A stretch of DNA of 64,000 bases from Hyphomicrobiales bacterium (GTDB lineage Bacteria > Pseudomonadota > Alphaproteobacteria > Rhizobiales > Beijerinckiaceae), in assembly GCA_930633495.1 (NCBI GenBank), contig CAKNFJ010000002.1, forward strand, positions 124,001 to 188,000, read 5' to 3'. This document shows positions 1,820 to 47,538 of this stretch, one piece after another (position 1 is the first letter of the stretch; the number at the start of each line of letters is the position of its first letter). The notes below the pieces were generated by a model. It was not told the DNA's origin, did no database searches, and worked only from the letters and a program-made list of their open reading frames with translations. A program made the translations under genes and the position numbers.

Positions 1820-1851
1820 ATGAATAAGGGGGCGCGAGCCCCCTTATTCAT
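1820..1851. terminator. bidirectional intrinsic terminator
   Basis: A perfect 13-bp inverted repeat (ATGAATAAGGGGG and its complement) with a six-base loop lies between the convergent coiled-coil gene and the dotA-like gene. The minus-strand stop codon (1848-1850) is embedded in the right arm. The A/T-rich stem bases give U-rich tracts on both strands, so it can act in both directions. Confidence 0.75.
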
Positions 1852-23930: not shown

Positions 23931-24140
23931 ATGGCGACCGGTACCGTGAAATGGTTCAACGCAACGAAGGGCTACGGCTTCATCACGCCGGACGCCGGCG
24001 GCAAGGACGTCTTCGTGCACATCAGCGCTGTTGAGCGTTCGGGCCTTCGCGAGCTCTCGGATGGTCAGAAGATCTCCTACGACCTTGAGGCGGATAAGCG
24101 CTCCGGCAAGGAGAGCGCGGTCAATCTCAAGAACGGCTGA
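23931..24140 (+). CDS. cspA: cold shock protein, CspA family
   Basis: A 69-residue single OB-fold domain starting [18 protein letters not shown], the RNP1-containing signature of CspA proteins, followed by [13 protein letters not shown] (RNP2). It would bind single-stranded RNA or DNA as a chaperone. A strong terminator follows. The copy is complete, whereas a decayed copy lies near 35774-35861 in the same position relative to the second giant gene. Confidence 0.92.
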
Positions 24141-24197: not shown

Positions 24198-27100
24198 TCA
24201 CATCACGTTGATGATGATCTCTTCACTGAAGACCAACTGTCCGCGGCGGTCCGATCCGTTCATCTTGTACCCGCGGTAGCGACCAGGCGTCACTCCAACG
24301 GCCACGGTTCCCGAGATCGTGCCCGTCGCCTGATCGTAGACCAGACCCGAAGGCAGGAAGCTCTTCACGAAGTCGCCGTTCGCTCCATCCTGGACGCTGG
24401 AAGTTCCAGCACTGAGGCTCGCGCCGAAGGTGAACGGCCCAAGCGGCGTCGTAGCCGTCGCCTGGATCGTGACCGGCTGCCCACGCACCGCGTCGGTCAT
24501 GGTCGGCACCTGAATCCGGGCGGCATCCGCGGCAACGACCTCGACGATGATCTCGTCAGAGAAAGTCAGCACATTGCGGACGTCCCTGACTGAGACCTTG
24601 TAGCCGCGGTATCGGCCAGGGGCCACATTCACCTGGATCGTTCCCGTGATCGAGCCGTCCGTCGGGTTGTACACGAGCCCGCCCGGAAGGGTGCCCTTGT
24701 TGAAGTCTCCCGCCTGACCGTCGGCCACCGGCGCGGTGCCTGCGCTGAGGGAACTGTTCCAGGTGATCGTGCCGAAGCCGTTTTCGACCGTTGGAACCAG
24801 CGACACGGCCTCACCAGGCCTCACCGTGACATAGGTTGGCACCTTCACGGTGAGCGCTGGGCGCTGCAGGACACGGATCAGGATTTCGTCCGTGCAAGCT
24901 GCCCGATTAATGCTGTCGGTCGCGCAGATGCGATATCCGCGATAGTTCCCCTCCGGCGCTTGCGCCGACAGAGTTCCAGTCAGTGACCCGGCGCTGTAGC
25001 TCAGCCCCGTTGGGAGGGACGTCTGCTTGATCGTGCCAATGCCATCAGTTTGGGTGTAGTTGGCAGTCGTCGAAATCGCGCTGTCCCACGTCACCGAGCC
25101 GAAGTTGCCCGAGATGGTCGGTCGAACATCGACGCTGTCTCCCGCCGTGATCTCCAGCAGCGACGGCGCCTTCAGCGTGAAGGGCTCCATCTCCGCGATG
25201 CGAATGATGATCTCCTGGGTCATGCCGCGATAGGTGGCGCCCTGGCTATCATTCGCCGCGATTTTGTAACCTCGGAAATTGCCGATGACGGTTGGCGTTC
25301 CGGAGATGGTTCCGGTGCTGGTATCGAAGCTCAGCCCAGACGGCAGCGTGGTCAGCATCTGATCGTCGTTGCTGGCCGCGCTTGGTGAGGTCTGCTGGGT
25401 GAAAAGCTGCCAGCTTACCGGGCCGACCGCATTGCTGACGGACGGAGTGACGCTGAGGGACTGGCGCCGCGTCCCGTCGATGTAAGGCGTCATCTCGACG
25501 GTCACCAAAGGACGATCAGCGATTTTGAAGGTCACCTCGTCGGCACAAGCCTGCCCTGCCGCCGTGGGCCCGCAGACCTTATACCCGTGCCAGTTGCCGC
25601 CAGCCGTCTGCTGAATGCGAGCCGCGCTGAACCTGCCGGTAGTCGTGTCGAAGCTGACGCCGCTCGGCAACGCGCTGCTATAGTATTCCTTCCCGCCCGT
25701 CAGGGACGGGATAGGGCCGTAGGTCAGGGTATAGGGACCCGTCACCGAAGCCGCGCCGGAAAGGACCGGAATGACGTCGAGGGGTTCGTTCGCGGTCGCC
25801 ACGATGGTGTTGTTCGTCCCGTAGGCGAGCTTCGGCGCCGAACTCGCGGCGGCACCAGCGAGCTTGAAGTTCCTCGCTGACACGGTGTTGTCGACGCTCG
25901 TTCCGTTAACCGAGCGGGTTTCTCTCAACTGCACAAAGTAGACGCCGGTGCCATAGGTCGCGACCGTAGGCGTGCCGGAAATGCGACCTGTTTGCGGGTT
26001 AAAGGACAGCCCCGCGGCCAGATATGTCGTTCCGTTGGAGGCAGCCCAGGTTGACCCGGTGAAGTAGTACAGCGTGTAGGCCGTTCCGCCTTCGACGTTC
26101 GAAACGACTGGATCAATCGTCAGCGGTTGGCCGATCACCCAGTCCGTTCGCTCCGGATAGGCCACCGAAGGCATGTCCCAATTCGCGATCGCGATCGAGA
26201 ACGCGTTCGAATAGAAGGTCTGGACGATCCCGTTCCGGTTTTCCGTGAAGATGTAGCGGTAGAGCGCGTTGGGAGTGGTCGTCGTGACGGGGGTCCCAGT
26301 GATGACGCCCGTAGCGGCGTTCATCGTGAGGCCCTGCGGCAGGGTCGCAGTTGTGTAGTAGCTTCCGTTGAACCCCTGAAGCTGCACAGGGTTCAACGTC
26401 CCCACAACGCCGGTGATCGTCGGCGTGATCGTCGCCGGAACGCCACGACGAATCTGAACAGTCTGATCGACTGTGGCAGCCGGCTTCGCCCAGTCCGCGA
26501 CCGTGATCACCATCTGGTTCGAGTAGATCTGGATGCTCTGGCCGTTCCGAGTCTCGGTCGCGTAGAGGCGGTAAGACTGGAAGAAGGGGGCTGCACCAAT
26601 CGGAGTGCCTCCGAAGGCGCCGGTGGCGCTCGACCAGGTCATGCCCTGAACGACGCTTCCGCTACCAATATTCGTCGTGGAGGTTCCAGAGAGACCGTAA
26701 AGGTACCAGTTCGCAATCGGGCCGGAAACACCCTGAAGGGTGGGGACAATCTCGATGGGCTGCCCACGGGCCACCGTCACATTCGACGGCAAAATGATCT
26801 TGCCGGTTTCCCAGTTCTGGATCGAAAGCGTGAACTGGTTCGACAACGCGGCCACGGACCGGGAGTCGACCGCGTAGATCGCGAATGTCGTCGCCGGCAC
26901 GCTCTGGACGGAGGTGGTGCCGCTGATCGTACCGTTGGCGGGGTTGAAGGTGATGCCCGCTGGAAGATGGGATGCGGTCGCCCCGACGAGGCTTCCGCTC
27001 TGGGCAACGTACAACGCGTAGGTCGTCGCACCGACATTGCCGGTGATGGTCGGCGCCATCGAGAACGCTTGTCCGCGCTGGATGTCGAACTTCGACGCCG

Positions 27101-30100
27101 TCGAGACCTTCATCGGCTCCCAGGCTTCGACCACAATGGTGAACTGGTTACTGGTTGCCGTCACGGCCGAAGGGGATCGATTATCGACTGCAACGATCCG
27201 GTACGCAGGCTGGACTGAATTCGTCGTCGGTGCGCCGGAGATCGTTCCGGTCGTCGCATTGAACGTCAGACCCGCCGGAAGGGCCGACGCAGGGGCGTTG
27301 TTCCAGTAGGTGCTCAGATACTGAAGGGTGAAGCTCTGAGAGGCGCCGGTGGCCCCTGTCAGAGTAGGAGCGACGGAAACCGACGCACCCTGCTTCGTGT
27401 AGACGATCGACGGCATCGCCACCGAGAACGAGGCGGAATCCGCCGTGACCGCGATCGCGAACGAGCGCGAGGTCGCCGTAAGGCCGTCCCCGTCACGCAC
27501 AAGCAGACGGATCTCGGAGCCGGTCCCGACGGTGGTCGGGGTGCCGGAAATCACTCCAGTGCCGTTGTTGAAAGTGAGACCGGCGGGCAGGGTTCCAATG
27601 ACTTCCCAGACCAGGGTGGGAACCGCATTGGTCACGGTCGGCGTGAAGGAGAACGCCTTGCCGGCCACTGCGGAGAGTGCCGAGATCGATGCGATCTGCG
27701 GAGCAGCGCCCACGGTGATCGTGTAGCTGACGTCCTTCGAGGCACCGGTGGCGTCCGTAGCGCGAAGCTTCACGAGGAAGCTGCCCGCCTGTCCTGGCGT
27801 ACCTGTGATGTAGCCGTTTGCCGCATTCAGGTTGAGACCTGACGGGAACGGACCCTGGATCAGGCTCCACGTCACGGTCCCGCTGGCGCCCGTCGCAATC
27901 GCGTTGGCGAGATAGACCTTGCCGATGCGATTGTTGGAGCTGACCTCGGTGACGGCCGCATCGAGGCCATCCTGAACCGTGATGGTGATCGTTTGGGTAT
28001 TCGCCGTCTTCGAGGAATCAGAGACGCGCAGCGCAAGCTGATAATTGCCATTCACCGTCGGAGCGCCATAGAGCGCGCCAGTAGTTTCATTGATGGCAAC
28101 ACCCGCAGGGAGCGCGCCGGAAATGACCGACCACATCACGCCGCCGATCGTGTTCTGCGACGTCGGGCGGATGTCGAGCTGCGCATTACGGCGGACCGTG
28201 TAGGCGTTGGCATCGAACGACGCCGTCGGGATCACGCGGTCGGAGACCGTGAGGGTCAGCTCCGGTGTGCTGGCCGACTGATAGTTATAGGTCGCCTGGA
28301 TGCTGAAAGAGCTTGCACCGACCGCGAGCACCGTGGGCGTGCCGGACACGACACCGGTGATGGCGTCGAACGACAAGCCCTGTGGCAGGCGGCCCGAGAT
28401 CACCCAAGAAGCGTATTGGCCGACAGTCTGGTTCTGCAGGTAGGCCACAGGAGCCAGCCGGAAGGGCTGGCCGACCGTAGCGGTGAAGGCCGTGGCGCCG
28501 GCGTCGACGACGAAGGCGTTCTCGCTGACGATGAGCGAGAGCTGCGCCTCTGCCACCGCGCCGTCGCTGTCCGTCAGGCGAACGGTGATGAGCGTGGGAG
28601 CATTCGCAGTCGGGCCGGTTGGCACACCAGTGATCGCGCCCGACGACGTGTTGAAGTTCAGCCCCGCCGGCAGGGTGCCGTTGAGCGTGAAAGTCGGCGC
28701 TCCAAGGAGGTTCTGCGTGGTCGGAACGATGTTGCTGTTCACAGCCGGGCGAATGACCGCCGACTGATAGACCAGCGACGGGCCGACCTGGACATCGAGC
28801 GTGTGCGTGAGCGTTGCGGCCGCATTCTCGCTGTCGACCACTTTCACGACCGGCGCATAGCTGCCGAACTGCGTCGGAGTGCCCGAGATCTTGCCGGTGG
28901 AGTCGATCGTCACGCCCGGAGGCAGTGCGTTCGACGAAATCGACCAAGTCACCCCGCCGACCGCGTTGGCGACAGCCAACTGTGTCGTCGATGCAAGACC
29001 CTTGCGCCATTTCGGAGCCGCCGAGGCGACCGAGATCACGTTCGGCTGAGCGACCGCCAGCACGAAGGTCTCGGACGAACCCGAGATCGACGTCGCTGTG
29101 TTGAGCGCGTTGATCTTGAGCGACCCAGAAGTGACCGCCGTCGTCGGGGTGCCGGTGATGGAGCCGTTTGCGGCCGTGAACGTCAGGCCGGCCGGAAGCG
29201 TCCCGGTCAAGGACCAGGTGACCGTCGAGATGTTCGTGGTCGGGACCAGGGTGAAGGGCTTGCCGACCTTCGCGGTCGGGATCTCACCGAGGAACACGTC
29301 AGGCGCGTTCGAAACAGCGATACGGATGTCCGCCGAGGTCGCGACGTAGCCGTCGGTGTCTCGCGCCTGAACCCGGACGATGGACGTTCCGTTGACCGAG
29401 GCAGAGCCGCTGATCTGGCCGGTGCTGCCGTCCAGCGTGATACCAGCCGGCAAGGTCCCGCTGGAAACCGAGAACTGAAGCGCACCCAGGTTGTTGCGGA
29501 CCGTCGGGTTCAGCGTCAACGATTGGCCGGGAGTGATCGGCGAGTTCGCGGTGTAGCTGATGGTGGTGGCCGGCAGAACCGTGGCCGTGACCTCAGTCGA
29601 AGCCGTCCGGCTGTCCTGCGAGTCCTTGACGGTCAGGGCGTAGACCCAATTGCCGCTGGCTCCCGCCTGCGGCGTGACAACCATCGCGCCGGTCGCGGAA
29701 TTGATGCTGTACGGGCGAGGATTCCCGCTGACATTCGCAATCGACCAGATCGGCGTCCCGCTGATACCAACGGCGGTCGGCGCCTGCGTCGTGAAGGAAA
29801 CGCCAGCGCGCGTGGTGTAGGTCGGCTGCGCAGTGGTGACCGCGAGACCCGAATTGACCGTGATCGAGAAGGGCGACGATGTCGTCGACCTGTTGTCGGT
29901 CGTATCGGTCAGCGTCAGCGTGAGGCCAGGGAAAGTCGCAAGCGTCGCATAGCCCGTTGGCGTGCCCAGCAGGCGACCGGTAGCGGGGTTCAGCGAAACG
30001 CCGTTTGGCAGGTTCCCGCTGATCGTCCAGTAGCCCGCGTTCGGGTAGAACAGGTTGCCGCCTGTAGGCGCGAGAGCGTTGCTCTCAACTGCAGTCTCGT

Positions 30101-33100
30101 TGCGAAGCGTGACGTTGCCGACATTGCCGATCGACGGGTTCGGCATCACACCGAATGTGAAGGACGCGGTCGCCCTCGCATAGTCAGAGGTATCGGTCGC
30201 CGTCAGGGTCGCGATCGTCGGCGAAACGCTGGTCGACGGCACGCCGCGAATTTGACCGTTGGCGGGATCGAGGCTGAGACCCTGCGGCAGCGCGCCGTTG
30301 GTCAGCGCCAGCGAGAAGGTCACCGTCGGCCCGGCCTGGCCGATGATCGTCGGCTGACCGAGGTCGATGAACGAGCCGATGCGGGCGAAGTAGGAGTTGC
30401 CCAGGCCTGTGATCGAGAACTGCGGTCCGATGGTCAGCGAAACGAGTGGAGAGTCAGCGACCGACTGGTCGTTGCTGTCCGTCACCCGAATCATGAAGAA
30501 CGACGAGCCAGGCGCGGTCGGCGTGCCGGTGATGCGGCCGGTGGAGTTGTCGAAGGTGAGACCCGCAGGCAGCTGATCGCTGCCTGGCTGGAACACCAGA
30601 GACCACGTCGGCGTGCCAGCCAGGCCGGTTGCAGTCGCGGTCACGGAGACCGCGTCGCCGACGCGCTTCTTCACTGTGTCCGTCGAGACGGTGACGGTCG
30701 GCTGGTTGTAGACCGTCAGCGTGAACGGAGCGGACGAGGCAACCTTGCCGGTCGTGTCCGAAACGATCAGCGTCAGTCCGCTGCTAGTCGTGATCTCATT
30801 CGGCGTGCCGGTCAGAACGCCCGTGGCGGCGTTCAGCGAGACCCAGGCCGGAGGATTGGAACCCTGACCCCACGACCAGTTCGAAGCGCCAACCGCATTG
30901 ACGGCGGTGGGGCGAGCGCTGGTGAAGGCCGTACCGTTGCGAGCGAGGAAGCTGGTGGGGAGATTGGCGACGCCAAGTCGGCCGATCACCTGCAACGACA
31001 GCGTGAGCTCGTTGGACTTCTCCTGGTCAACCGAGTCGGTTGCCGTGAGCGTGAGCGGTCCGACCGTCGTCAGATCCACCGGCGCCAAACCGGTGATGGT
31101 GCCCGTGCCCGGGTTGAAGGTTGCCCAGCCCGGAAGGGTTGCGCCGGTGAGAGTCCAGGTCAGGGTTCCGCGCTGGCCGGAAACCGACGGAGCGTTGCTC
31201 GCGAAGGTGTCTTCGGCGTGAACCTGGACCGTGCTCGGACCGGCGATAGTAAGCTTTCCGGCGATCTGGACGGTCAGCGGGACCGCGAGGGTCGCCTGGT
31301 CGCTCTTGTCGCGAACGATGAGGTTTGCGGTGAACCCACCTGCATTGCTCGGCGTACCACCAAGGGCGCCGTTCGCGCCGTTCAGCGTCATCCCAGGGAC
31401 GAGGCTGGCTTGCGGTGCGAGCGACCAGACCAGCTCTCCGAGAGAGCCGTTGATGGTCACTGGAGCCATGCTGAAGGCGCGCTCGACACGTCCTCCGTAG
31501 CTCGGCGCCTTGTTCGCGACCGATAGGCCAGGAGTAGCCGAGATCGTGAAGTTCGGGCTGGTGCTAACCGCGCCATCCGCCTCGGTCACCTTGAGCGAAA
31601 GGGTCCAATCGCCAGTCGCCTCAGGCGTGCCGGTGATCGCGCCCGTCGACGGATTGAGCAGAGCCCACGCCGGGAGCGTGCCGGTGTTGACGCTCCAGCT
31701 CGTCGTCGTGACGGCGCCAGTGACGGTGGGCTCGAAGGTGAGCGGAGCGCCGACGCGGACGGACTTGTTCGCAACCGCGATCTGCGCCGAATTCTTCGTG
31801 TCGATCGTGATCGGCGTAACCGTCGCCGAACCGCCGGCGGAATCCGTCAGGCGGAGAATGACCGTGTGATTGGACGCAGCGGTTGGCGTGCCGGAGAACA
31901 CGCCCGTGGTCGTGTCGAGGGTCGCCCAACTCGGGAGGGTCCCCGAGTCGATCGACCAGCTGATGGTGCCCTTCGCGTTGAAGACCTGCGGGGCCTCCGA
32001 TGTGAAGGCGACACCGATGCGCGGGGTGTAGTTCGAGGGAGTCGCCGCGGACAGGCCGGAACTGATGACGATCGAGAACGGCGTCGAGGTGGCGACACCG
32101 CCTGCGGCATCGGTCATGCGAAGCGAGATGCCAGAGATCGTTTCGATCGCGGTCGGGCGACCGCTGATGGCTCCGGTCGAGGTGCTCAGCGTCGCCCAGC
32201 TCGGAAGCGTCCCGGAGGCGAGCGTCCAGGTCTGCGGAGCAACGGCATTGGTGACCGACGGAGTGGCGGCGAATGCGGCGTCGCGCGCGCCTGGGTACTC
32301 GGAGGCAACCGTGATCTGGGGGTCGCCGAGTACCGTAATGCTGAAAGCGCTCGTCTGGGCAGTGGCCCGATCGTAGCTGTCCGTGACCGTCAGGATGAGG
32401 TTGGTCGCCGAGACTGAGCTCGACAGATTGCCCGAGATCACGCCGTTCGCCGGGTTGAGCGTCAGGCCGGCCGGCAGTGTGCCGGAGGTGATCGCGAAAG
32501 TCGGTGAGCCGAGCACGCCGGCGAGCACCGGCGCCGGGGTCGCGATCGGGCTGTTGATGTGGAAGCTCAAGGACGAATCCAACGTCGCCGTCAGCGTCGG
32601 GCGCTTAACCGTCAGCTTGAAAGGCGTCGTTTGGGCGTTCGTTCCGTTCTCATCGGTTACACGCAGGCGCAGTCCCGCCGTCTCGGCGAGGGAGCTCGGC
32701 GTGCCGCTGATGCGCCCGGTTGAGGTATCGAGCGTAGCCCAAGCGGGCAGCGTCCCGGCTGCGAGCGACCAGGCGACCGTGCCCTGGGCACCTCGAACCG
32801 TCGGGGCTGGCGCGTTGAACGGGACATTGAAATAAGCGATCAGCTCTTCACTGAACGGCTCCATCGTCAATGGCGAAGGACCAACCGTGATGGTGAACGG
32901 CTTGGTCGAGGTCGTTGCGCCGCTCGAATCCTGTCCAGACACGACCAGGCCCGAGAAGGTGCCCACAGTCGTCGGTAGGCCCATGATCGTGCCGCTCTGC
33001 GTAAGCAGTGCGAGGCCCGCTGGCAGATTTCCCGCGCTGATCGACCAGGACGAGGTTCCCTTGGCCCCAACGACAGTCGGCGAGGCGCTGAAGGTGCTTC

Positions 33101-35495: not shown

Positions 35496-35721
35496 TTTCT
35501 GCTCTGACCCCAAGAACCAGACACTACAGTCCTTGATGTGTAACTGGGTTCCTTGCGGATTTCCATAGACGCAACCCGTCGGTCCACCAACCGCTTATGG
35601 ATAATGGTGTTTTACCATCAGTCTGGCGGAGGACTGATCAAGCCTCGAAGGAATTTCGAGGGCGCATGATGGATTCCCCGCGCGATTTGAAGGATTGAAG
35701 GAACCGGAATTCCGCCGATTC
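35496..35721. promoter_or_regulatory. upstream region of giant gene 1, conserved with giant gene 2
   Basis: About 220 bases shared, by eye, with 47220-47456. Identical or near-identical blocks include the CTGACCCCAAGAACCAGAC leader, CCTTGATGTGTAACTGG, CCACCAACCGCTTATGGATA, CGAAGGAATTT, GATTTGAAGGATTGAAG and a closing GATTCGAG. Read on the minus strand, CATTATCCATAAG may contain a -10 box. GANTC sites are at 35672-35676 and 35717-35721. No gene is seen. Confidence 0.5.
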
Positions 35722-35773
35722 GAGCCAGTTCCTCGTGCTGTCGATGACAGGGTTTGGACGATCGAGGCAATCG

Positions 35774-35861
35774 GGCAAGGACTCTTCGTCTACATCAGAG
35801 CGGACAAGCGTTCGGGCACGCGCGAGTTCCCCAAAGCACAAAGGAGAACGCGGTCAACCTC
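35774..35861 (+). pseudogene. decayed cspA remnant
   Basis: The segment aligns with the cspA gene at 23931. GGCAAGGAC-TCTTCGT matches the DVFVH region with one base missing (a frameshift). CATCAG and AAGCGTTCGGGC match the next part. After a deletion of about 40 bases, GAGAACGCGGTCAACCTC matches the cspA 3' end. A terminator of the same sequence follows at the same distance. This fits a copy carried along when the giant gene was duplicated and then lost. Confidence 0.6.
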
Positions 35862-35891
35862 TGGGCTGGCTGGAAGGCACTTTTGGAACTT

Positions 35892-35920
35892 GAAAGGGGC
35901 GCCACGGCGCCCCTTTCTTT
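35892..35920. terminator. terminator downstream of giant gene 2
   Basis: GAAAGGGGCGCC and GGCGCCCCTTTC form a near-perfect dyad, followed by TTTGT. It lies just after the giant gene 2 stop (convergent side) and after the decayed cspA copy. It is closely similar to the terminator at 24167-24196. Confidence 0.7.
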
Positions 35921-35921
35921 G

Positions 35922-38900: not shown

Positions 38901-41900
38901 GTAGTCGATCACGACAATGCGATACGACTGCGAGCTGGTCGTGGTCGTGGGAGTGCCCGAGATCACTCCCGTCGTTGTATCGAAGCTGACGCCAGTCGGC
39001 AGGTTTGCCGAGGAGGCGGCGTACCAGTTGGCACCGGAGTACCACTGGAGCGAATACGTCTGGGACGAGCCTGTTGCCCCATTGAGGGTCGGGGAGACAG
39101 AGGTGGCTACACCCATCTTGAAGTTCACAACCGACGGCATCGTCGCGGTGAAAGTCGTCGATGCAGCGTTCACGGTGATTGTGAAGGCGCGCGAGGTAGC
39201 GGACAGCCCATCGCCGTCGCGGACCACGAGCCGAAGGTCATTGGCCGACCCTGGGGCGGTGGGGGTTCCGGATATCCTGCCCGTGGCAGTGTCGAAGGAC
39301 AGGCCAGCCGGCAGCGTCCCGACCATGCTCCAAACGAGCGTCGGAACAGCTGAGAGCGCGCTAGGGGTGAAGGAGAAGGGGCTGCCTACGACCGCCGTCT
39401 GCGACGCGACGACCGCGATCTCGGGAGCATCATTGACGTTGATGATGTGGCTGACCTCCTTGGAGGCGCCGCGCGCATCAGTCGCGCGAAGCTTCACAAG
39501 GAAGTTTCCAGCCTGCGTGGGCGTACCGGTAATGTAGCCATTGCTGGCGTTGAGGCTGATGCCCGTGGGCATTGGTCCCTGGACGACGCTCCAGGCGACC
39601 TCCCCGTCCCCTCCGGTGGCAACGGCGTTGGCGAGATATACCTTGCCGACGCGGTTGTTCGAGCTGACCTCGGTAACCGCGGCCGTGAGGCCGTCCTGGA
39701 CCACCAAGGTCACCGTCGGGGTGACGCCAAACCTGGAGGAATCCGTCGCACGCAAGGCGAACTGATAGCTTCCGTTGGTGATGGGAGTTCCCGTCACGGC
39801 GCCGGTCTGGTCGCTTGCAGCGAGCCCTGGAGGTAGCGTCCCCGAATTCAGCGACCAGAAGACATCGCCAACGGCGTTCTGAACGGTGGGCACGATCGAG
39901 ATAGGCGCGCCGCGGCGAATTGTGTAGCTGCTCGAAGCAAACGTCGCGATCGGGGCCGCACGGTCGGCGACCGTCAGGGTGAGCGAAGGCGTGCTGGCCG
40001 ACTGGTAGTTGTAGGTCGCCTGGATGCTGAAGGTGTTTGTCCCCGCAGCCAACGGGCTTGGTGTACCGGAAATGACACCGGTGATTGGATCGAAGGTCAG
40101 GCCCTGCGGCAGCTTCCCGTTGATCGACCACGAGGCGTACTGACCGACGGTCTCGTTCTGCAGATAGGCAACGGGCGCGAGCCGGAAGGGCTGACCCACC
40201 GTCGCCGTGAAAGCAGTCCCGCCGGCATCAACGATGAACGCGTTTTCGCTCACAATCAGGGATAGGGAGGCCTCGGCGATTGCTCCATCGCTGTCCGTCA
40301 ACCGGACGGTGACGACCGAAGGCGCGGAGGAGGCATCCGTCGGCGTGCCTGCGATGGCGCCCGTCGACGTCGAGAAGGTCAGCCCGGCAGGCAGGGTGCC
40401 GGTGATAGCGAACAACGGCGTGCCAATGAGATCCTGCGTCCGCGGGAGGACGTTGCTGTTCACACCGGGGCGCAGGATGACGGCCTGATAGGTGATCGAG
40501 GGTCCAGCCTGCACACTCATTGTGTAGGGGAGCGTCGCCGAGGCCTGCTCGCTGTCGACGATCCTGATGACCGGCTGATAAGTGCCGAAGGACATCGGGG
40601 TGCCCGAAAGCGACCCGGTCGTGGAATCGAGCACAACTCCCGGAGGAAGCGAACCGGAGCTAACGCTCCAGGTCACTGATCCAACGGCGTTCGCGACTGC
40701 GAACTGAGCCGTCGACCCCAGGCCCTTGCGCCATTTCTCGGCCGCGGCGCTCACCGAGATGACGTTCCCCTCCGCGACGGTGATGGTGAAATCCTCGGAA
40801 TAGCCCGTGATCGACGTCGCCGTGTTCAGCGCGTTGATCCTCAGCGTCCCCGACGATCCCACAGAGGTTGGCGTTCCGGTGATCGAGCCGCTCGCGGAAT
40901 TAAAGGTCAGGCCCGCGGGAAGCGTCCCGGTCAGCGACCAGGAGACGGTCGCGATGTTGGTCGATGGTACGATGCTGAAGGGCTTGCGAACCTTAGCGAG
41001 AGGGATTTCTCCAACGAACACGTCAGGTGCGTTCGTGACGGCGATGCGGATGTTGTCCGAGATCGCGTAGTAGCCGTCGGTATCGCGGGCGGCGATCTTG
41101 ATCGTTGAGGTGACGGTGGCAGCGCTGGTGCCAGTGATCGCTCCGGTCGTAGCGTTCAGCGACATGCCGCTCGGCAGCTGACCGGTGTAGACCTCGTACG
41201 AGAGCGCCCCGAGATTGTTCCTCACGACGGGAGCCAGCGAGATCTGCTGCCCAGGGGTGAGGGCGGTATTGGACGCGTAGGAGATCGTGGTGGCAGGGAG
41301 GATGTTCGCGGACACCTCCGTGGATGCAGTCTTGCCGTCCAAAGAGTCCTTGACGCTCAGTGCGTAGACCCAGGTGCCTGCAGCATTCGCAGGGGGCGTC
41401 GTGACGATGACGCCCGTGGCCGAGTTGATGCTGTAGGGGCGGGGGACCCCAGAGAGGGTGGTCAGCGACCAGGTCGGCGTCCCGCTTATTCCGATAGCCG
41501 TGGGGGCCGCAGTGGTGAAGGACACACCAGCGCGCAGAGTATAGCTCGGCTGGCTCGTGGTCACCGCCATTCCCGAGTTCACGGTGATGCTGAATGGCGC
41601 CGAGGTGACCGCTTTGTTGTCGCTCGTGTCGGTCAGAGTGAGGGTCAGGCCCGGGAAATTCGTCGACGCGGCATAGCCGGTCGGCGTGCCCTTGAGGCGG
41701 CCGTTCGCGGGGTCCAGACTGACACCGGTGGGCAGGGTTCCGTTGACGGTCCAGTAGCCCGCGTTGGCGTAAAAGAGATTGCTCGCCGAAGGAACCAACG
41801 CGGCGGTCTCAACGGGCATGTCGTTTCGGAGCGAAACATCCCGCACGCCGCTGATGGCCGGGTTCGGCAAGGCGCCCAAGGTGAACGTCGCCCGGGCTTT

Positions 41901-44900
41901 CGCCTGGTCATAGCTGTCGGTTGCCGTGAGGGTCGCCACCGTGGGGGAAAGGGCGGTCGCCGGCACACCTCGGATATGGCCCGTCGATGGGTCGACAGAG
42001 AGGCCAGACGGCATCGTGCCGCCAGCAACCGAAACCGAGTAGGACACGGTCGCGCCGGCCTGGCCGACGAGCGTCGGCTGTCCGAGGTCGATAAAGGAGC
42101 CAATGCGGGCGAAATAGGCGTTTCCGAGGCCGCTGAGGACGAACTGCGGTCCGATGGTCAGCGAAACCAGCGGGGAGTCTGCGATCGACTGATCATTGCC
42201 GTCCGTGACCCGGATCATGAAGAACGCAGACCCAGGCGCGGAAGGCGTTCCCGAGACGCGGCCAGTCGCGGTGTCGAAGATTAGCCCGGCCGGGAGCGGA
42301 TCGCTGCCAGGCTGGAAGACGAGCGACCACGTTGGTGTCCCAGCCAATCCCGTCGCCGTCGCGGAAATCGAAATGTCATCGCCGACCCGCTTCTTGACGG
42401 TGTCTGCGGAAACGGTGACGGACGGCTGGTTGAAGACGGTCAGGGTGAAGGGAGCGGAGGACGCCACCTTGCCGGTCGAGTCGGTTACGATAAGCGTTAA
42501 TCCGCTCGTGGTGACGACCTCGCTCGGCGTGCCGGTTAGCACGCCGGTTGCGGCGTTCAGCGTGACCCAGGACGGAGGGTTCGAGCCCTGTCCCCAAGTC
42601 CACGTGGCTTGCCCGATGGCGTTGATGACCGAGGGGCGGGCGCTTGTGAACGGCGTGCCGTTGCGAGCGGAGAAGCTGGTCGGAAGCCCCGCGACGCCCA
42701 GCCGGCCGACGACGTTGATCCCGATATCGACTTCCGCCGATTTCTCCTGATCGAGCGTGTCCGTTACCGAGAGCTTGAGGGGGCCAACCTTCGTCAGGTC
42801 TCCGGGCGCGGTGCCCGTGATTGTGCCGGAAGCCGCGTTGAAGTTCGCCCATCCGGGCAGGGTCCCACCCGTGAGCGACCAGCTGAGCGCACCTCTCTGG
42901 CCGACAACCGAAGGCGCGGGCGTTGCGAATGGCTCATCAGCGTGGACGGAAACCGTTCCAGGCGCTCCGATCGTCAGCTTCGGGGCGATCTGGATAGACA
43001 GTGACACGCGCAACGTCGCCTGATCGGCCTCGTCACGGACTTCCAGGTTCGGAGCGAAATTACCTGAAAGGTTCGGAGTTCCACTGAGAGCACCATTGGC
43101 GGTGTTCAGGGTTAGGCCGGACGGGAGGTTGGACCTGGGAGCGATCGACCAGACGAGGGTTCCGATGGCTCCGTTGACCGTGACAGGTGCCATGCTGAAC
43201 GGCCGCTCGATGCGTCCGCCGTAGCTCTGAGCCTGGTTCGCGACGGAAAGACCAGGGGTCGCGGTAATTGTGAAATTTGGGCTGGTGCTGACCGCGCCGT
43301 CGGCCTCAGTCCCCTTCAAGGACAGCGTCCAGGCTCCGGTCGCTACCGGCGTTCCGGTGATGGCGCCGGTGGCCGTATCCAGGACCGCCCAAGGAGGGAG
43401 CTCGCCACTGGAGACAGTCCATTCCATGGTCGTGACGGCGCCGGTAACGACCGGCTGAAGCGCCAAAGGCGCTCCGACACGAAGCGATTTGCTCGCGACC
43501 GCGATTTCAGCCGAGCTCTTCGTATTGAAGGTCAACGGAGAAAGCGTCGCCGTTCCGCCTGCGGAGTCCGTCAGGAGCAACGTGACCGTGTGGGTCGAGG
43601 CCTGAGTCGGGATGCCCGAGATGACGCCAGTCACCGCGTCGAGGGTTGCCCAGCTCGGCAGTGAGCCCGTTTCGACCGACCACGAGATCGTGCCCTTGGC
43701 GTTATAGACGCGTGGCGAATCCGTTGCGAACGCGACGCCGATGCGGGGGGTGTAGATCGTGTGATCCGACGAGGCCGAGAGGCCCGATCCGATGGCGATC
43801 GAGAAGGGTGCCGAGACAGCAGATCCTCCGGCAGCGTCCGTCATCCGAAGCGAAATGCCGGTGCTGGTTTCGATCTGGGTGGGGGTGCCGAAGATCTTGC
43901 CGGTGGTCGCGGATAGCGATGCCCAGCTTGGCAGGGTTCCGCTCTCGATCGTCCAATTCTGGACGCCGACAGCATTGGTCACGGAAGGCGACGCGGAGAA
44001 GCCCTCATCGCGGGCGCCGGGATACTCCGATGCCACGGTGATCTGGGGATCACCCATTACGGAGATCGTGAACGAGTTCGTCCGCGCCGTCGCCTGATCG
44101 AAGCTGTCCGTCAGCGTCAGGATCAGACCGGCGCTGGAAGCGGGTGCGGACAACGTGCCTGAGATGACGCCCGTCGCGCTGTTCAGGACGAGGCCGGAAG
44201 GGAGCGTTCCGGCCGTCAGCGTAAAGGAAGGCGAGCCAATCAAACCCGCCATGGTCGGAGCCGCGGAGGAGATTGGCGTATTGACGTGGAAGCCGAGGGA
44301 GCTCGGGACCGAAGCGGTGAGCGTCTGGCGCTTGACCGGGATCTTGAAGATCGTTGTCTGCGCGTTGGTCCCGTTCTCGTCCGTAACGCGGACACGCAGA
44401 CCGCCGGTCTCTGTCAGCGCGTCCGGTGTGCCGCTGATGCGCCCGGTGGCTGGATCAAAGCTGGCCCAAGACGGAAGCGTTCCGGAAATGAGCGACCAGA
44501 CCAAGGTTCCTCGGGCACCGCGCACGACTGGCGCCGGGGCAGTGAAAGGCGTGCCATAGGTAGCGGCAAGCTCCGCGGGGTAGGCCTCCATCGACAACGG
44601 CGACGGTGCGACCGTGATGGCGAATGCGTTGGTTGAGGTCGTGGCGCCGGTGGAGTCCTGACCGGAGAGAACAATCCCTTGGAAGGCCCCAACTGTGCTC
44701 GGAACGCCCGAAATGTGACCGGTCGTAGCATTCAGACCGAGGCCCGGGGGCAGCGTGCCGCTGCTGACAGACCACGTGACTGCACCCCTTGCGCCCACCA
44801 CTGAAGGGCTCGCACCAAAAGTGCTCCCTTGAGTTGCCGTGAGGCTCGCGATCGAGGCCGAGAACACTGGTGCGTCGACGACGGAAATGGTGAACGGAGA

Positions 44901-47219
44901 GCTGCGACCGCCGCGACCAAACCGGTCCGTGACAATGAGGCTGATCGCCCCGCTCACTTCTGCCTGCGGCGGAACGCCGGAAATCACACCGCTCGTGGTG
45001 TTCAAGGTAGCCCAGGAGGGCAAGGTGCCCGAGTCGACAGCCCATGTCAGCGGAGCAAAGGCGTTGGCAACGGACGGGGCGGCAGCAAATTCCTGGCCCG
45101 TGGTTGCGATGCGCGAGGCCATGGAAACAGTCGGGCTGCTATCCGACGGCGCGATCGAGAAATCGAAGTAATTCGAGACGGCCGAATTTCCAACCTGGTC
45201 CGTCACAAGGATCGACAGGCCACTCAGGTCTCCCGAAACGGTCGGCAGGCCCGAGAAGCGGCCACGGAGCGTATCGAACGTGAGGCCCTCGGGAACCCGC
45301 CCCGTTGCAAGGGCATAGAACTGGCCGCCCTGCCCCCCAGATACGGTCGGAACTGCCGTCGTAATCTCTTCGGCGACCTTCGCCTGCAGCGTCTCCGGCA
45401 TCGAGATCGCCATCGGCGCAGAGGGCGTTACAGCGATCGAGAATGTTGAGGAAATTGCCTGGGCATTGTCGGCGGAGTCGGTGGCGCGATAGGACAGGCC
45501 AGAAATTACCTCCGGAGACGCAGGGGTTCCCGCGATCGTGCCAGTCGCGGGCTCGAAGAGCGCCCAGCTCGGCAGCGAACCCGTCAGCGACCAGCTCACA
45601 GTGCCTTTGGCGCCGCTGACCGTGGGTGTGTACTTGAAGAACGTGTTGGTCGAGGCCGGAAGGCTCTCGGGGATCGCAGCGATCTCAAAGGCGATCGGCT
45701 CTTCTTCGGGACGAACATCGATCCGGAAATCGCGCGAAATCGCCCTTATGCCGTCCACCGAGTCGCGGACCTGGAGCGATGTCTGGACTGCCCCGACGGT
45801 CGTCGGGGTGCCGGAAACAATGCCTGTGACCGTGTCAATCGACAGCCCGGCGGGCAATCCGCCCGAGATCGACCAGGTGGGCGTCCCAATCAGGCCCTCG
45901 ACCACGGGCGCAGCCATTGTGAAGGGTTTATTGACCCGGGCAGCCGGGACAGAGGGCGCCTCGATTTTAAGGCCCTTGACGATGTTGATCGTGGTCGGTG
46001 CGGAGGTTGCGGTTGCTCCGTCGAACAAGTCGACCACGGTGAACGTCACGCCTGGATAGGAGGCTATCCCGCCGACATCACCGAAGAGGGAGCCGTTAGA
46101 GTAGCTGAACTCGTAGCCGGGCACCGATCGCGACATCGACCAATAGCCGCCGGCGAGCAGGTTGCTCCCCTGCGGACGAACGAGAAGCTTGGCGCCCTGC
46201 CCCTGGCGGAAATTGTAGGTTGCGCTCACCGCGATCGTCGGCGCGTCTGCGACGTTGATCGAGACAGGAGCGGAGATGGTGGAGGCGCCGGTCGTGCTAT
46301 CGACGACCTTGAGCGCGACGCCCGTGGCAGTTCCGGTGGAAACAGCGGTTCCTGAGATCGCACCAGTGCTGGAGTTGAGGGAAAGGCCAGCTGGCAGGGG
46401 TGTGCCCTCTTCGGACACCGTCCAGGTATAAGGCCCTGGCGTTCCGGTAGCAGTCGGACGGATCTCATTCATCGCGCGAGCGAGGCGAGCCGAGATCTTC
46501 GAGGGCAAGCCCGCGATGTTGATCGACGACGTGACCGCGATCGCAAACTCCGAAGAGGATCCGGTGGCGCCGTCGGCATCGGTCACCGAAAGCCGAAGGC
46601 CGGCATAAGTCCCCTGCTGACGCGGCGTGCCGCTGATCGAGCCCGTGTTGGGGTTGAGGCTCAGGCCAAGCGGAAGCTGGCCGGAAAGTGTCCAGGCCTG
46701 CGAACCGAACACAGGGCGCGCGTTGGGCCGCAACGCGAACTCGTCCCCGGTCTTGGCGGTGTAGCTCGGTGAAACCGTGATCGTCGGGACCGGCTGGACA
46801 TCGATGATGAGCGATGGGCTTTCGCCCCACTTCCCGTTCGCGTCCACGCCTTTGAAGCGGGCCGCTTGCGAGGTCTGGATGGCGGTCGGAACACCCGAGA
46901 TCAGGCCGGTGCCCGGGTTGAAGGTCAGTCCATCAGGAATCGCCGTTCCGATGCTGCTCCATGCGATCGTGCCGGTCGCATTCTGCGCGGTCAGCTGCAG
47001 CGAAAAGGGAACGCCGAGACGAGCCCGGACCTGCACGGGAAGATAGATGGCTAGATCGCCGGTGCCGCGAACGGGCCCCTCTTCGCCAGGCGTTCCGGGA
47101 TTCGTCGGGGTCGCGACGCTCGACACAGCATGTCGGAAATAAAACGCCTGCTGGGCAAAAGCGCCCTGCGGGAGCGCAATCGCGACGGCCAGGACGGCAC
47201 TGATGATACGGCGAAGCAT
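35922..47219 (-). CDS. giant secreted putative-Ig (He_PIG) repeat protein, copy 2
   Basis: About 3,765 residues, the same length as copy 1. It starts at the ATG at 47219 with the near-identical signal peptide MLRRIISAVLAVAIALPQGA. The same 39 repeats occur in the same order, and individual repeats pair one-to-one with copy 1 (for example GYEFS in repeat 4 and RPYSINSATG in repeat 21). Sequence has diverged throughout, but no repeat was gained or lost. Synonymous drift and amino-acid changes are spread along the gene. No anchor or barrel is visible. It is divergent from the GntR regulator gene region and convergent with the cspA remnant. Exported surface or matrix protein is the likeliest role, by analogy. 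Confidence 0.85.
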   Translation of the reverse strand: MLRRIISAVLAVAIALPQGAFAQQAFYFRHAVSSVATPTNPGTPGEEGPVRGTGDLAIYLPVQVRARLGVPFSLQLTAQNATGTIAWSSIGTAIPDGLTFNPGTGLISGVPTAIQTSQAARFKGVDANGKWGESPSLIIDVQPVPTITVSPSYTAKTGDEFALRPNARPVFGSQAWTLSGQLPLGLSLNPNTGSISGTPRQQGTYAGLRLSVTDADGATGSSSEFAIAVTSSINIAGLPSKISARLARAMNEIRPTATGTPGPYTWTVSEEGTPLPAGLSLNSSTGAISGTAVSTGTATGVALKVVDSTTGASTISAPVSINVADAPTIAVSATYNFRQGQGAKLLVRPQGSNLLAGGYWSMSRSVPGYEFSYSNGSLFGDVGGIASYPGVTFTVVDLFDGATATSAPTTINIVKGLKIEAPSVPAARVNKPFTMAAPVVEGLIGTPTWSISGGLPAGLSIDTVTGIVSGTPTTVGAVQTSLQVRDSVDGIRAISRDFRIDVRPEEEPIAFEIAAIPESLPASTNTFFKYTPTVSGAKGTVSWSLTGSLPSWALFEPATGTIAGTPASPEVISGLSYRATDSADNAQAISSTFSIAVTPSAPMAISMPETLQAKVAEEITTAVPTVSGGQGGQFYALATGRVPEGLTFDTLRGRFSGLPTVSGDLSGLSILVTDQVGNSAVSNYFDFSIAPSDSSPTVSMASRIATTGQEFAAAPSVANAFAPLTWAVDSGTLPSWATLNTTSGVISGVPPQAEVSGAISLIVTDRFGRGGRSSPFTISVVDAPVFSASIASLTATQGSTFGASPSVVGARGAVTWSVSSGTLPPGLGLNATTGHISGVPSTVGAFQGIVLSGQDSTGATTSTNAFAITVAPSPLSMEAYPAELAATYGTPFTAPAPVVRGARGTLVWSLISGTLPSWASFDPATGRISGTPDALTETGGLRVRVTDENGTNAQTTIFKIPVKRQTLTASVPSSLGFHVNTPISSAAPTMAGLIGSPSFTLTAGTLPSGLVLNSATGVISGTLSAPASSAGLILTLTDSFDQATARTNSFTISVMGDPQITVASEYPGARDEGFSASPSVTNAVGVQNWTIESGTLPSWASLSATTGKIFGTPTQIETSTGISLRMTDAAGGSAVSAPFSIAIGSGLSASSDHTIYTPRIGVAFATDSPRVYNAKGTISWSVETGSLPSWATLDAVTGVISGIPTQASTHTVTLLLTDSAGGTATLSPLTFNTKSSAEIAVASKSLRVGAPLALQPVVTGAVTTMEWTVSSGELPPWAVLDTATGAITGTPVATGAWTLSLKGTEADGAVSTSPNFTITATPGLSVANQAQSYGGRIERPFSMAPVTVNGAIGTLVWSIAPRSNLPSGLTLNTANGALSGTPNLSGNFAPNLEVRDEADQATLRVSLSIQIAPKLTIGAPGTVSVHADEPFATPAPSVVGQRGALSWSLTGGTLPGWANFNAASGTITGTAPGDLTKVGPLKLSVTDTLDQEKSAEVDIGINVVGRLGVAGLPTSFSARNGTPFTSARPSVINAIGQATWTWGQGSNPPSWVTLNAATGVLTGTPSEVVTTSGLTLIVTDSTGKVASSAPFTLTVFNQPSVTVSADTVKKRVGDDISISATATGLAGTPTWSLVFQPGSDPLPAGLIFDTATGRVSGTPSAPGSAFFMIRVTDGNDQSIADSPLVSLTIGPQFVLSGLGNAYFARIGSFIDLGQPTLVGQAGATVSYSVSVAGGTMPSGLSVDPSTGHIRGVPATALSPTVATLTATDSYDQAKARATFTLGALPNPAISGVRDVSLRNDMPVETAALVPSASNLFYANAGYWTVNGTLPTGVSLDPANGRLKGTPTGYAASTNFPGLTLTLTDTSDNKAVTSAPFSITVNSGMAVTTSQPSYTLRAGVSFTTAAPTAIGISGTPTWSLTTLSGVPRPYSINSATGVIVTTPPANAAGTWVYALSVKDSLDGKTASTEVSANILPATTISYASNTALTPGQQISLAPVVRNNLGALSYEVYTGQLPSGMSLNATTGAITGTSAATVTSTIKIAARDTDGYYAISDNIRIAVTNAPDVFVGEIPLAKVRKPFSIVPSTNIATVSWSLTGTLPAGLTFNSASGSITGTPTSVGSSGTLRINALNTATSITGYSEDFTITVAEGNVISVSAAAEKWRKGLGSTAQFAVANAVGSVTWSVSSGSLPPGVVLDSTTGSLSGTPMSFGTYQPVIRIVDSEQASATLPYTMSVQAGPSITYQAVILRPGVNSNVLPRTQDLIGTPLFAITGTLPAGLTFSTSTGAIAGTPTDASSAPSVVTVRLTDSDGAIAEASLSLIVSENAFIVDAGGTAFTATVGQPFRLAPVAYLQNETVGQYASWSINGKLPQGLTFDPITGVISGTPSPLAAGTNTFSIQATYNYQSASTPSLTLTVADRAAPIATFASSSYTIRRGAPISIVPTVQNAVGDVFWSLNSGTLPPGLAASDQTGAVTGTPITNGSYQFALRATDSSRFGVTPTVTLVVQDGLTAAVTEVSSNNRVGKVYLANAVATGGDGEVAWSVVQGPMPTGISLNASNGYITGTPTQAGNFLVKLRATDARGASKEVSHIINVNDAPEIAVVASQTAVVGSPFSFTPSALSAVPTLVWSMVGTLPAGLSFDTATGRISGTPTAPGSANDLRLVVRDGDGLSATSRAFTITVNAASTTFTATMPSVVNFKMGVATSVSPTLNGATGSSQTYSLQWYSGANWYAASSANLPTGVSFDTTTGVISGTPTTTTSSQSYRIVVIDYRSPSNVTATTNQFTFSIDAWTPIQVTTAPKYDIVRGQEFGMQPAVTGNVGETSYTLQAASGGSWVAFNAAYLPAGITFNPANGSISGTTVVPNVPMTTFRILVRDARNVTAYSNQFVLGIANWEMPRITLPNNVTVNRGQSIEIAPIIQGVAGTIQSMGLQGLSGGNYFNPGTAVMPGVTFNPATGVISGIPTSSLSSYQAYRIWLTENRNGQVQTVYSNQLVITVNDWATPTISIDSSVKVARGVPAVITPTVTGVSGTLGNFSVYGLSGGNWATASLPQGMTLNTTTGVISGTPQAATSPQSYYRLYGQETRQGQTFGFSSNAFAINITDWSPPTIVYPLRTSFVIGAPITIQPVVENVEGTTNYNLYYYNGTALSASSDGRWLPNGLAFDRTTGQITGTPTAGTYGTGIYYVNGTETRSVGGVNQNIAMSAPNFHIEAAPASGTPTLSYGNDNTVDAVANGQVDAAPALAGAAQVTGPYTLTFTPITGLTGGKVNYVNSLPAGMTFNSTTGRFTASALGPSTGGRWYGYKVCAPTPAGQACGTVTFNIADRPNVVVDVMPYIDGTRRQSLNVVPTARNAVGAVSWTLQAQIISVNALNAGEFATASMPPGLTFNGSTGAISGTPTQAGIFRGYRLVATDSQGASFRGQTQEIIIRIADVEPFTLTAPGIIDVNVNEPVDFSPVPAGNVGSVVWNSSLTILANTINDGQGTFRQNALPLGLSYDASRGRILGTPAVSLAEGLYRGYRICGTDELARSACTGEIIIRVQPKPVLAVKVPLYVTVRQGEAVQIVPNAENAYGTPVWNSVIISGSAPVLNGHNGDFVSGSLPPGLSYSAATGTIQGTVSLTTSPGRWRGYKIAVRDGRNISVNSDEIIIEVVTGEPLAIQAPLVTEAVRGQPISIQATASNVIGTLAWNPAIITGASTAQNGTNGDYVSGSLPPGLTYSAATGMISGTVTAATAPGRWRGYKFGATDSRNAGVTSDEIIINVQ

Positions 47220-47538
47220 TTTCTGCTCTGACCCCAAGAACCAGACACCAAAGTCCTTGATGTGTAACTGGCTTCCTTGCTCACTTCCATAGGCGCGAGC
47301 AGCGGGTCCACCAACCGCTTATGGATAATGGGGTTTTTCCAGCGGTCGGACGGAGGAATAGTCCGACATTCGAAGGAATTTTCAGGACTGATGATGGATT
47401 CGCTACGAGATTTGAAGGATTGAAGAAACAAGAACCACAGCGATTCGAGCGAATTCGTCGCGAAATGCGTTTGACGCAAGCAAGGATCGAGCGTGGGATC
47501 GATACCGCGCCGCATCGAAATCAGGGGTGTCGGACGGC
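47220..47538. promoter_or_regulatory. upstream region of giant gene 2
   Basis: The first 237 bases match the upstream region of giant gene 1 in ordered blocks (see 35496-35721). GANTC sites are at 47397-47401 and 47452-47456, and GAAGGATTGAAG is at about 47414. The remaining stretch up to 47538 is downstream of the GntR gene and shows no recognised element or gene. Confidence 0.45.

What the first reader, a model, noticed from the sequence alone, without database searches (positions are those of the whole stretch)
24198..47219. Two collinear giant Ig-repeat paralogs of equal length in tandem
The sequence shows two minus-strand genes, each about 3,765 residues, with the same signal peptide start and 39 He_PIG repeats that pair one-to-one in order. 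The paralogs have clearly diverged, yet neither gained nor lost a repeat. Repeat proteins of this size normally change copy number by recombination. This points to whole-gene duplication followed by strong constraint on overall length. No anchor, barrel or RTX repeats are visible, so how they leave or attach to the cell is open.
Basis: partly seen in the sequence, partly recalled or inferred. Interest (0 to 1): 0.78.

Follow-up and report, generated by a model that had tools for sequence, protein, structure and literature searches.

The report
Twin giant 39-domain plasmid surface proteins
A Bosea megaplasmid carries two side-by-side copies of a giant rod-shaped surface protein built from exactly 39 immunoglobulin-like domains, a number kept by its close full-length relatives, with a stable base and a variable tip that probably touches a partner cell or filament.

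Summary
In detail: two minus-strand genes of 3,765 codons carry 39 He_PIG-type repeats each, pairing one-to-one in order (39 of 39), at 65% identity with nine small indels. Repeats are too diverged to recombine (longest exact internal repeat 16 bp, chance level), so unchanged copy number is expected. Six other full-length family members, down to 50% identity, also have 39. Exact equality is coincidence (five gap columns each side). Indels are half as dense as in ordinary genes at similar divergence, but equal at closer range. The tandem unit was promoter + giant gene + csp; a decayed csp separates the copies. Unexpectedly, the N-terminus and repeats 1-29 are conserved while repeats 30-39 evolve faster, and repeats 30-34 carry a hairpin that, in several relatives though not in A, agrees within a protein and differs between proteins. 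The replicon encodes Dot/Icm-type transfer proteins and a type IVb pilus. Best reading: a fixed-length secreted rod with a multivalent tip, perhaps a mating/contact factor like R27 RSP. Function is inferred.

The parts
24198..35495 (-). Paralog A, 3765 aa giant He_PIG protein (TTG-initiated ORF reaches 35513)
   Evidence: 88.8% identical to pANAM02 WP_173050145 (P0003)
35922..47219 (-). Paralog B, 3765 aa giant He_PIG protein (TTG-initiated ORF reaches 47237)
   Evidence: 84.8% identical to P0002
35271..35495 (-). A residues 1-75: signal peptide and the most conserved N-terminal module (PVRGTGDLAIYLPVQVRAR)
   Evidence: signal peptide judged by eye
46995..47219 (-). B residues 1-75, same module
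27438..35327 (-). A repeats 1-29 (conserved rod)
   Evidence: dN/dS 0.08 against pANAM02
25890..27419 (-). A repeats 30-34 (hairpin-bearing, faster-evolving)
   Evidence: (model covers repeats 30-33)
24201..25811 (-). A repeats 35-39 (C-terminal repeats, RGY motif in 36-39)
39156..47051 (-). B repeats 1-29
37599..39146 (-). B repeats 30-34
35925..37538 (-). B repeats 35-39
35496..35735 (-). Upstream region of A, 80.9% identical to that of B over 241 columns (presumed promoter region of the tandem unit)
47220..47460 (-). Upstream region of B
23931..24140 (+). Intact csp (cold-shock protein gene), convergent with A
   Evidence: 95.7% identical to the pANAM02 csp
35774..35921 (+). Decayed csp relic between B and A; marks the 3' end of the tandem unit
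   Evidence: local alignment score 62, maximum of 200 shuffles 23
1848..4847 (-). DotA/TraY family protein (Dot/Icm-type transfer component on the same replicon)
   Evidence: 94.4% to annotated pANAM02 WP_173050098; no Pfam or PHROG hit of its own
47539..48345 (-). GntR/UTRA regulator upstream of B, same neighbour in pANAM02

Best explanation
A and B are an old tandem pair of one plasmid-borne, Sec-exported, rod-like surface or extracellular protein made of exactly 39 He_PIG (Ig/cadherin-like) domains. SHOWN: the architecture, one-to-one pairing, purifying selection, csp relic, count of 39 in the eight full-length family members examined, conserved N-terminus with faster-evolving C-terminal third, within-protein agreement of the repeat 30-34 hairpins in several relatives, and Dot/Icm-type transfer genes plus type IVb pilus genes on the same contig. 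INFERRED: export by a Sec signal; the conserved N-terminal module docks the protein to an export or anchor partner; repeats 1-29 are a spacer of fixed reach; repeats 30-34 and 36-39 present several equivalent binding hairpins to one repetitive partner (a pilus, flagellum or glycan of the same or the recipient cell). The job is to promote or stabilise cell contact during transfer of the megaplasmid, as RSP and RSP2 do for R27. Two diverged copies would give two tip specificities on rods of equal reach.
For: 39 repeats in 8 of 8 full-length members (A, B and six others). A-B dN/dS 0.23, A-pANAM02 0.11; against pANAM02 first 100 codons 0.03, repeats 1-29 0.08, repeats 30-39 0.16-0.20. Hairpins of repeats 30-34: 43.5% identity within a protein against 29.8% between proteins at the same repeat; the rest of the repeat shows the reverse order, 37.4% and 41.3% (one protein per clade). 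AlphaFold2 (mean pLDDT 90) places the segment of repeats 30-33 in strand-turn-strand hairpins, mapped by me from the DSSP line. A stretch in repeat 36 matches the adhesin SraP by profile, E 8e-9; the RSP paper likens RSP's C-terminus to SraP and SiiE (PMC6764697, passages). DotG, DotH, DotI, PilN, PilO2 and pilus ATPase/membrane genes lie on the window's own 758,792-bp contig at 97-100% identity to pANAM02, TcpQ at 92%; DotA is in the window. Giant gene and a TraO/DotG-like hit (below the curated cut-off) occur in the same 3 of 67 Bosea genomes; the other 64 have neither, apart from one weak repeat-only match in G030. The M. extorquens AM1 megaplasmid, typed MPF_I, also has a 29-repeat He_PIG giant. 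RSP/RSP2: plasmid Ig-domain proteins exported by the conjugative machinery that bind pili and flagella (PMC8730810, abstract and sections 11 and 13).
Against: No direct functional evidence. The giant genes are not beside the tra/pil genes: DotA is about 20 kb away here and far away in pBSY19_1. Co-occurrence in Bosea may be one plasmid lineage counted three times. No sequence relationship to RSP was tested. PLSDB types the Bosea plasmids as non-mobilizable, and no relaxase or coupling protein is annotated in the stretches read (about 282 of 692 kb of pANAM02). The RAC05 copy is split, so it may be dispensable. Two proteins with a similar N-terminal module, P0127 and P0130, have only 25 recognised repeats and other C-termini, so the module does not always go with 39 repeats. 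A's own five hairpins are not alike (22% within, below its framework 32%), and in the six-protein set the framework too exceeds all its permutations. RAC05 hairpins are saturated at synonymous sites, so no recent conversion there. The model gives no reliable domain arrangement (pTM 0.52), so a straight rod is assumed.
Confidence: 0.4

Rival explanations
1. A general adhesin or biofilm matrix protein (Bap/BapA-like role) carried by the megaplasmid for life on sponge, alga or other surfaces; the tip binds an environmental or host glycan and has nothing to do with plasmid transfer.
For: pANAM02 comes from a sponge and pBSY19_1 from an algal phycosphere; profile match of repeat 36 to SraP, an adhesin; some other He_PIG giants of similar build end in glycine-rich stretches, by Pfam in P0123 and by eye in P0127 and P0130; a faster-evolving tip fits a variable ligand.
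Against: Found in only 3 of 67 Bosea genomes, each with the transfer-gene hit; no RTX domain or barrel recognised.
Confidence: 0.35
2. Length equality and repeat collinearity need no special constraint: an ancient domain array with repeats too diverged to recombine was duplicated whole and only acquires rare small indels.
Against: At about 64% identity indels are about half as dense as in 24 ordinary genes (2.4 against 5.3 per 1000), and 39 repeats persist in 8 of 8 members, so some constraint on length is likely. This rival explains the observation, not the function, and is compatible with the best explanation.
Confidence: 0.6
3. B did not arise by duplication in this lineage but came in beside A from a sister megaplasmid that carried a diverged allele (P0002-like), by recombination at the csp-Ig unit.
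For: A is nearest to pANAM02 and P0004 (89-90%), B to P0002 (85%); A-B dS 1.22 exceeds A-pANAM02 dS 0.57; pANAM02 has one copy. The csp relic keeps 73-79% identity to csp in its aligned pieces, less diverged than A-B synonymous sites (pS 0.60), though past constraint on csp may explain that.
Against: The same data fit an older duplication with loss of B in pANAM02.
Confidence: 0.4
4. A decoy or receptor-blocking surface layer against phages or against entry by competing plasmids, with the tip under pressure from the attacker.
For: Only the faster-evolving, possibly multivalent tip; structure look-alikes in phage tail proteins are common Ig folds.
Against: No defence gene neighbourhood was tested; no dN/dS above 0.5 in any window that could be computed (one A-B window was saturated).
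Confidence: 0.08

Closest known systems
RSP (R0009) and RSP2, Big-domain proteins of IncHI1 plasmid R27 (PMC6764697, PMC8730810)
   Same: Large Ig-domain proteins on a conjugative plasmid, two per plasmid in R27; RSP's C-terminus is likened to SraP in its paper, and a stretch in repeat 36 here matches SraP.
   Different: RSP is 155 kDa (about 1,400 aa) with one recognised Big_3 domain, not 39 He_PIG repeats; MOB_H plasmid rather than Dot/Icm-like; rsp and rsp2 map to different places on R27 (section 13); sequence homology not tested.
Putative Ig domain-containing proteins WP_173050145 (pANAM02) and WP_069052900/WP_335622299 (pBSY19_1)
   Same: Same family: csp neighbour, same N-terminal module, 39 repeats in pANAM02.
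   Different: Single copy in the stretches read; split into two overlapping ORFs in RAC05.
He_PIG giants of Methylobacterium/Methylorubrum (P0126/P0038, AM1 megaplasmid 2850 aa)
   Different: 29-30 repeats, different C-terminal ends, much lower similarity.
Giant1-5 of Apilactobacillus kunkeei (PMC12863079; abstract and one passage)
   Same: Consecutive genes for extracellular proteins of 3,000-8,000 aa; no recent gene conversion between them reported.
   Different: Gram-positive, beta-solenoid N-termini in Giant1-4; the term 'Ig-like' does not occur in the text.
Abalone VERL (PMC2704960; passages)
   Same: Repeat protein with most of its array evolving in concert, whose partner lysin evolves fast.
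   Different: Eukaryotic egg coat protein, whole repeats homogenised (3-22); here only a hairpin inside the repeats and only in some relatives. Analogy of pattern only.

Membership tests
He_PIG (PF05345) proteins | Matches to the curated Pfam model above the gathering score | tested here: met
   869.9 and 908.5 bits against cut-off 24
The 39-repeat family described here | 39 repeats, N-terminal PVRGTG[DE]LAIYLPVQ module, RGY motif at the C-terminus | tested here: met
   8 of 8 full-length members; by my own definition, and P0127 and P0130 share a similar module but have 25 recognised repeats
RSP/RSP2-type conjugation Big proteins | Encoded on a replicon with conjugative transfer genes | tested here: met
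   DotA, DotG, DotH, DotI, PilN, PilO2 on the same contig; relaxase and coupling protein not identified
RSP/RSP2-type conjugation Big proteins | Gene inside or beside the tra region | tested here: inconclusive
   DotA about 20 kb away in the window, but unlinked in pBSY19_1; in pANAM02 DotGHI and pil genes lie over 100 kb away
RSP/RSP2-type conjugation Big proteins | Sequence homology to RSP | not tested
   RSP sequence was not fetched
RSP/RSP2-type conjugation Big proteins | Needed for plasmid transfer; binds pilus and flagella | not testable with these tools
   needs experiment
T1SS giant adhesins (Bap/SiiE/RTX type) | C-terminal RTX or other recognised T1SS substrate domain | tested here: not met
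   Pfam and NCBIfam scans give no such domain; repeat 39 runs to the last residue. A T1SS signal that has no model would be missed
Autotransporter/intimin-type adhesins | Beta-barrel domain | tested here: not met
Recombining tandem-repeat adhesins | Near-identical internal repeats with variable copy number | tested here: not met
   longest exact repeat 16 bp / 14 bp, chance level; 39 in 8 of 8 full-length members. P0005, a B-like protein with 1,470 residues missing in frame, is a possible exception

The most novel reading that the evidence does not exclude
The family is a molecular ruler with a specificity tip: a 39-domain rod of fixed reach whose repeats 30-34 (and 36-39) each carry the same kind of ligand hairpin. 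The whole set of hairpins changes together as the partner (pilin, flagellin or recipient glycan) changes, and a megaplasmid keeps two rods of equal reach with different tips to widen or select its mating partners.
Probability: 0.2. Interest if true: 0.78.

Novelty: new variant of a known kind. Interest (0 to 1): 0.5.

Why it matters
Giant Ig-array proteins are usually annotated and left. Here the sequence separates a constant base and rod from a variable, repeated contact hairpin, which makes it testable what the tip binds and whether domain number sets reach. If the mating role holds, it extends the RSP principle (plasmid-coded Ig giants that help conjugation) from the IncHI and IncA/C plasmids studied so far to Dot/Icm-type (IncI-like) megaplasmids of Alphaproteobacteria. 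The pair also shows that equal length in giant repeat proteins can simply follow from ancient, non-recombining repeats, a useful caution for such scans.

Tried and rejected
Copy-number stasis as evidence of special constraint: rejected as the main claim. Phage origin: megablast of A against phage records gave no match; PHROG matches of A are weak (best E 5e-9, a tail protein), and the BFVD matches are what an Ig tandem would be expected to give. Recent gene conversion as cause of hairpin agreement: RAC05 hairpins have pS 0.72, saturated, so there the agreement is old or selected; in P0007, P0011 and P0013 identical stretches of 22-28 residues suggest recent conversion, but I had no DNA. Hairpin synonymous divergence of A against pANAM02 is raised (pS 0.63; 2 of 5000 random placements over the gene reach it, 18 of 5000 within repeats 30-39), but the five give 0.82, 0.67, 0.42, 0.44 and 0.77, and of the two with equal lengths in both proteins one is high (0.67) and one is not (0.42), so misalignment may explain part; not used as proof. 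An order-wide search at E 1e-15 found only the window's genome among 397. The search for the Methylobacterium N-terminus in 397 family genomes was empty and by the tool's own note shows nothing. Hairpin boundaries were set by a regular expression that I tuned over three runs; in P0013 two HMM pieces were merged by hand for repeat 30. Foldseek of the C-terminal model against PDB gave generic Ig tandems, query-normalised TM 0.28 or less in the 50 rows listed.

Full report
WHAT IS THERE. The window is C2:124001-188000 of an unnamed Bosea genome (5.94 Mb, 3 contigs); C2 is 758,792 bp long. Its closest annotated relatives found are the Bosea plasmids pANAM02 (692 kb) and pBSY19_1 (709 kb). Two minus-strand genes, A (24198-35495) and B (35922-47219), each encode 3,765 aa. 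A repeat model built here finds 39 repeats in each, covering residues 57 to the end. All 39 repeats of A find their best partner in B at the same position. Identity is 64.6% with 9 indel events. Pfam sees He_PIG arrays and no barrel, RTX or anchor domain; NCBIfam has no matching model.

WHY THE LENGTHS AGREE. Within-protein repeat identity averages about 31.5%. The longest exact internal repeat is 16 bp in A and 14 bp in B; 20 codon-shuffled versions of each gave 13-17 and 12-17 bp. Recombination between repeats therefore has nothing to act on, and a whole-gene duplicate should keep its repeat number. Six further full-length proteins (P0002, P0003, P0004, P0006, P0007, P0008; 3,759-3,779 aa, 50-90% identical to the nearer of A and B) also have 39 repeats, making 8 of 8. 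Two more distant proteins with a similar N-terminal module, P0127 and P0130, have 25 recognised repeats and other C-termini, so the count belongs to the close family. Exact equality of A and B is a coincidence of five gap columns on each side. As yardstick, of 34 genes taken from the pANAM02 stretch 33 had a hit in the window: the 32 besides the giant gene give 95 mismatches per gap opening (a few of them partial or paralogous matches) and gene A 105. At greater distance I tried 56 of the annotated genes of two pBSY19_1 stretches against the pANAM02 stretches; 42 had a hit and 24 met the filter (50-80% identity, 80% of the length). These give 5.3 gap openings per 1,000 aa, against 2.4 for A-B and 2.8 for 2,145 columns of the giant gene between RAC05 and pANAM02. 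Length is thus held about twice as tightly as in ordinary genes at that distance, not absolutely. One B-like protein, P0005, lacks 1,470 residues in frame; I could not tell a real deletion from an assembly error.

ORIGIN OF THE PAIR. Upstream of both genes 241 aligned columns are 81% identical. Between B and A lies a decayed cold-shock gene: local alignment score 62 against a maximum of 23 in 200 shuffles. An intact csp lies downstream of A, as beside the single copy in pANAM02 and near the one in RAC05. The unit was upstream region + giant gene + csp. A is 89% identical to the pANAM02 copy (dS 0.57) but only 65% to B (dS 1.22), while B is 85% to P0002. Either the duplication is older than the split and pANAM02 lost B, or B came from a sister plasmid. 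I cannot decide.

A CONSTANT BASE AND A VARIABLE TIP. Between A and pANAM02, dN/dS is 0.03 for the first 100 codons, 0.08 for repeats 1-29 and 0.16-0.20 for the parts of repeats 30-39; A against B shows the same trend, 0.07, 0.20 and 0.28-0.41 (windows). Repeats 30-34 are longer (about 100 against 90 residues) and carry, before the LPxGLxF strand, a segment that AlphaFold2 makes a beta-hairpin in repeats 30-33 (mean pLDDT 90, pTM 0.52, 7 rows; repeat 34 was not in the model). Its sequence type is shared by most or all of the five repeats of one protein and differs between proteins, most clearly in RAC05 and P0013 (all five) and in P0007, P0008 and P0011 (repeats 31-34). With one protein per clade (A, RAC05, P0006, P0007, P0011, P0013; six of the eleven that had the segment cut), hairpin identity is 43.5% within a protein and 29.8% between proteins at the same repeat, while the rest of the repeat shows 37.4% and 41.3%; with all eleven the figures are 37.9 and 32.1 against 35.0 and 46.0. 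No permutation of 2000 reached the hairpin value (permutation mean 30.1), but none reached the framework value either (mean 33.2). In the three proteins from assembled Bosea genomes (A, B, RAC05) 3 of 2000 permutations reached the hairpin value and 769 of 2000 the framework value. Against this reading: A's own five hairpins are not alike (22%), and B's only weakly (33%); RAC05's five are saturated at synonymous sites, so agreement there is old or selected rather than freshly copied. I read the segment as the contact surface for one repetitive partner.

SETTING. The pANAM02 stretches read carry genes annotated as DotA/TraY, DotG/IcmE, DotH/IcmK, DotI/IcmL/TraM, PilN, PilO2, pilus-type ATPases and a type II secretion F family protein. 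The window's contig has these at 97-100% identity (TcpQ 92%), and DotA in the window at 94%. A hit to the IncI1 TraO model, below its curated cut-off, occurs in the same 3 of 67 Bosea genomes as the giant gene, which may be one plasmid lineage. The M. extorquens AM1 megaplasmid, typed MPF_I by PLSDB, has a 2,850-aa, 29-repeat He_PIG protein. R27 shows the principle: RSP and RSP2, large Ig-domain proteins exported with the conjugative machinery, bind pili and flagella and favour transfer (PMC8730810: abstract and sections 11 and 13; PMC6764697: passages). The RSP paper likens its C-terminus to SraP and SiiE; a stretch in repeat 36 matches SraP in the PDB by profile at E 8e-9. This is a likeness in kind. 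Homology to RSP was not tested, and R27 is another plasmid type.

VERDICT. Confirmed observation; interpretation partly right; function inferred. Most likely a fixed-reach secreted rod with a multivalent tip that helps the megaplasmid's host make contact for transfer (0.4); a general adhesin is nearly as likely (0.35). In the listings of seven literature searches, and in the parts of four papers that I read, I saw no description of this family; subscription papers are not covered.

Noticed in passing
pANAM02 and pBSY19_1 (L041, L042, L044, L045, L051, L052): These ~700-kb replicons carry their own DNA polymerase III alpha and epsilon, gyrase A/B, topoisomerase III, thymidylate synthase, dTMP kinase, ndk, dCTP deaminase, RtcB and RNA ligase besides RepC: a jumbo-phage-like set on a megaplasmid with Dot/Icm-type genes (several of them seen on only one of the two).
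   Followed up: no
A fourth pair, P0127/P0029 (2695/2846 aa), is only 30% identical. Whether any is tandem is unknown.
   Followed up: partly
window 12250-12380 and 14052-14182: A 78% direct repeat of about 131 bp between two neighbouring gene regions.
   Followed up: no
L010:6972-18448 (pBSY19_1): The RAC05 copy is annotated as two overlapping ORFs; judged by eye the frame changes near residue 2,190, so the gene is broken or the sequence has an error.
   Followed up: partly
window 60540-62849: A PBP1A-type penicillin-binding protein gene on the megaplasmid.
   Followed up: no
L009:16406-16771 (pANAM02): A gene annotated as colicin E3/pyocin S6 family cytotoxin in the block that is partly syntenic with the window.
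   Followed up: no
C2 outside the window, DotG/DotH/DotI at C2:720486-723362: Most transfer and pilus proteins checked are 97-100% identical to pANAM02 (DotA 94%, TcpQ 92%) whereas giant A is 89%, so the giant protein changes faster than most of the machine.
   Followed up: yes
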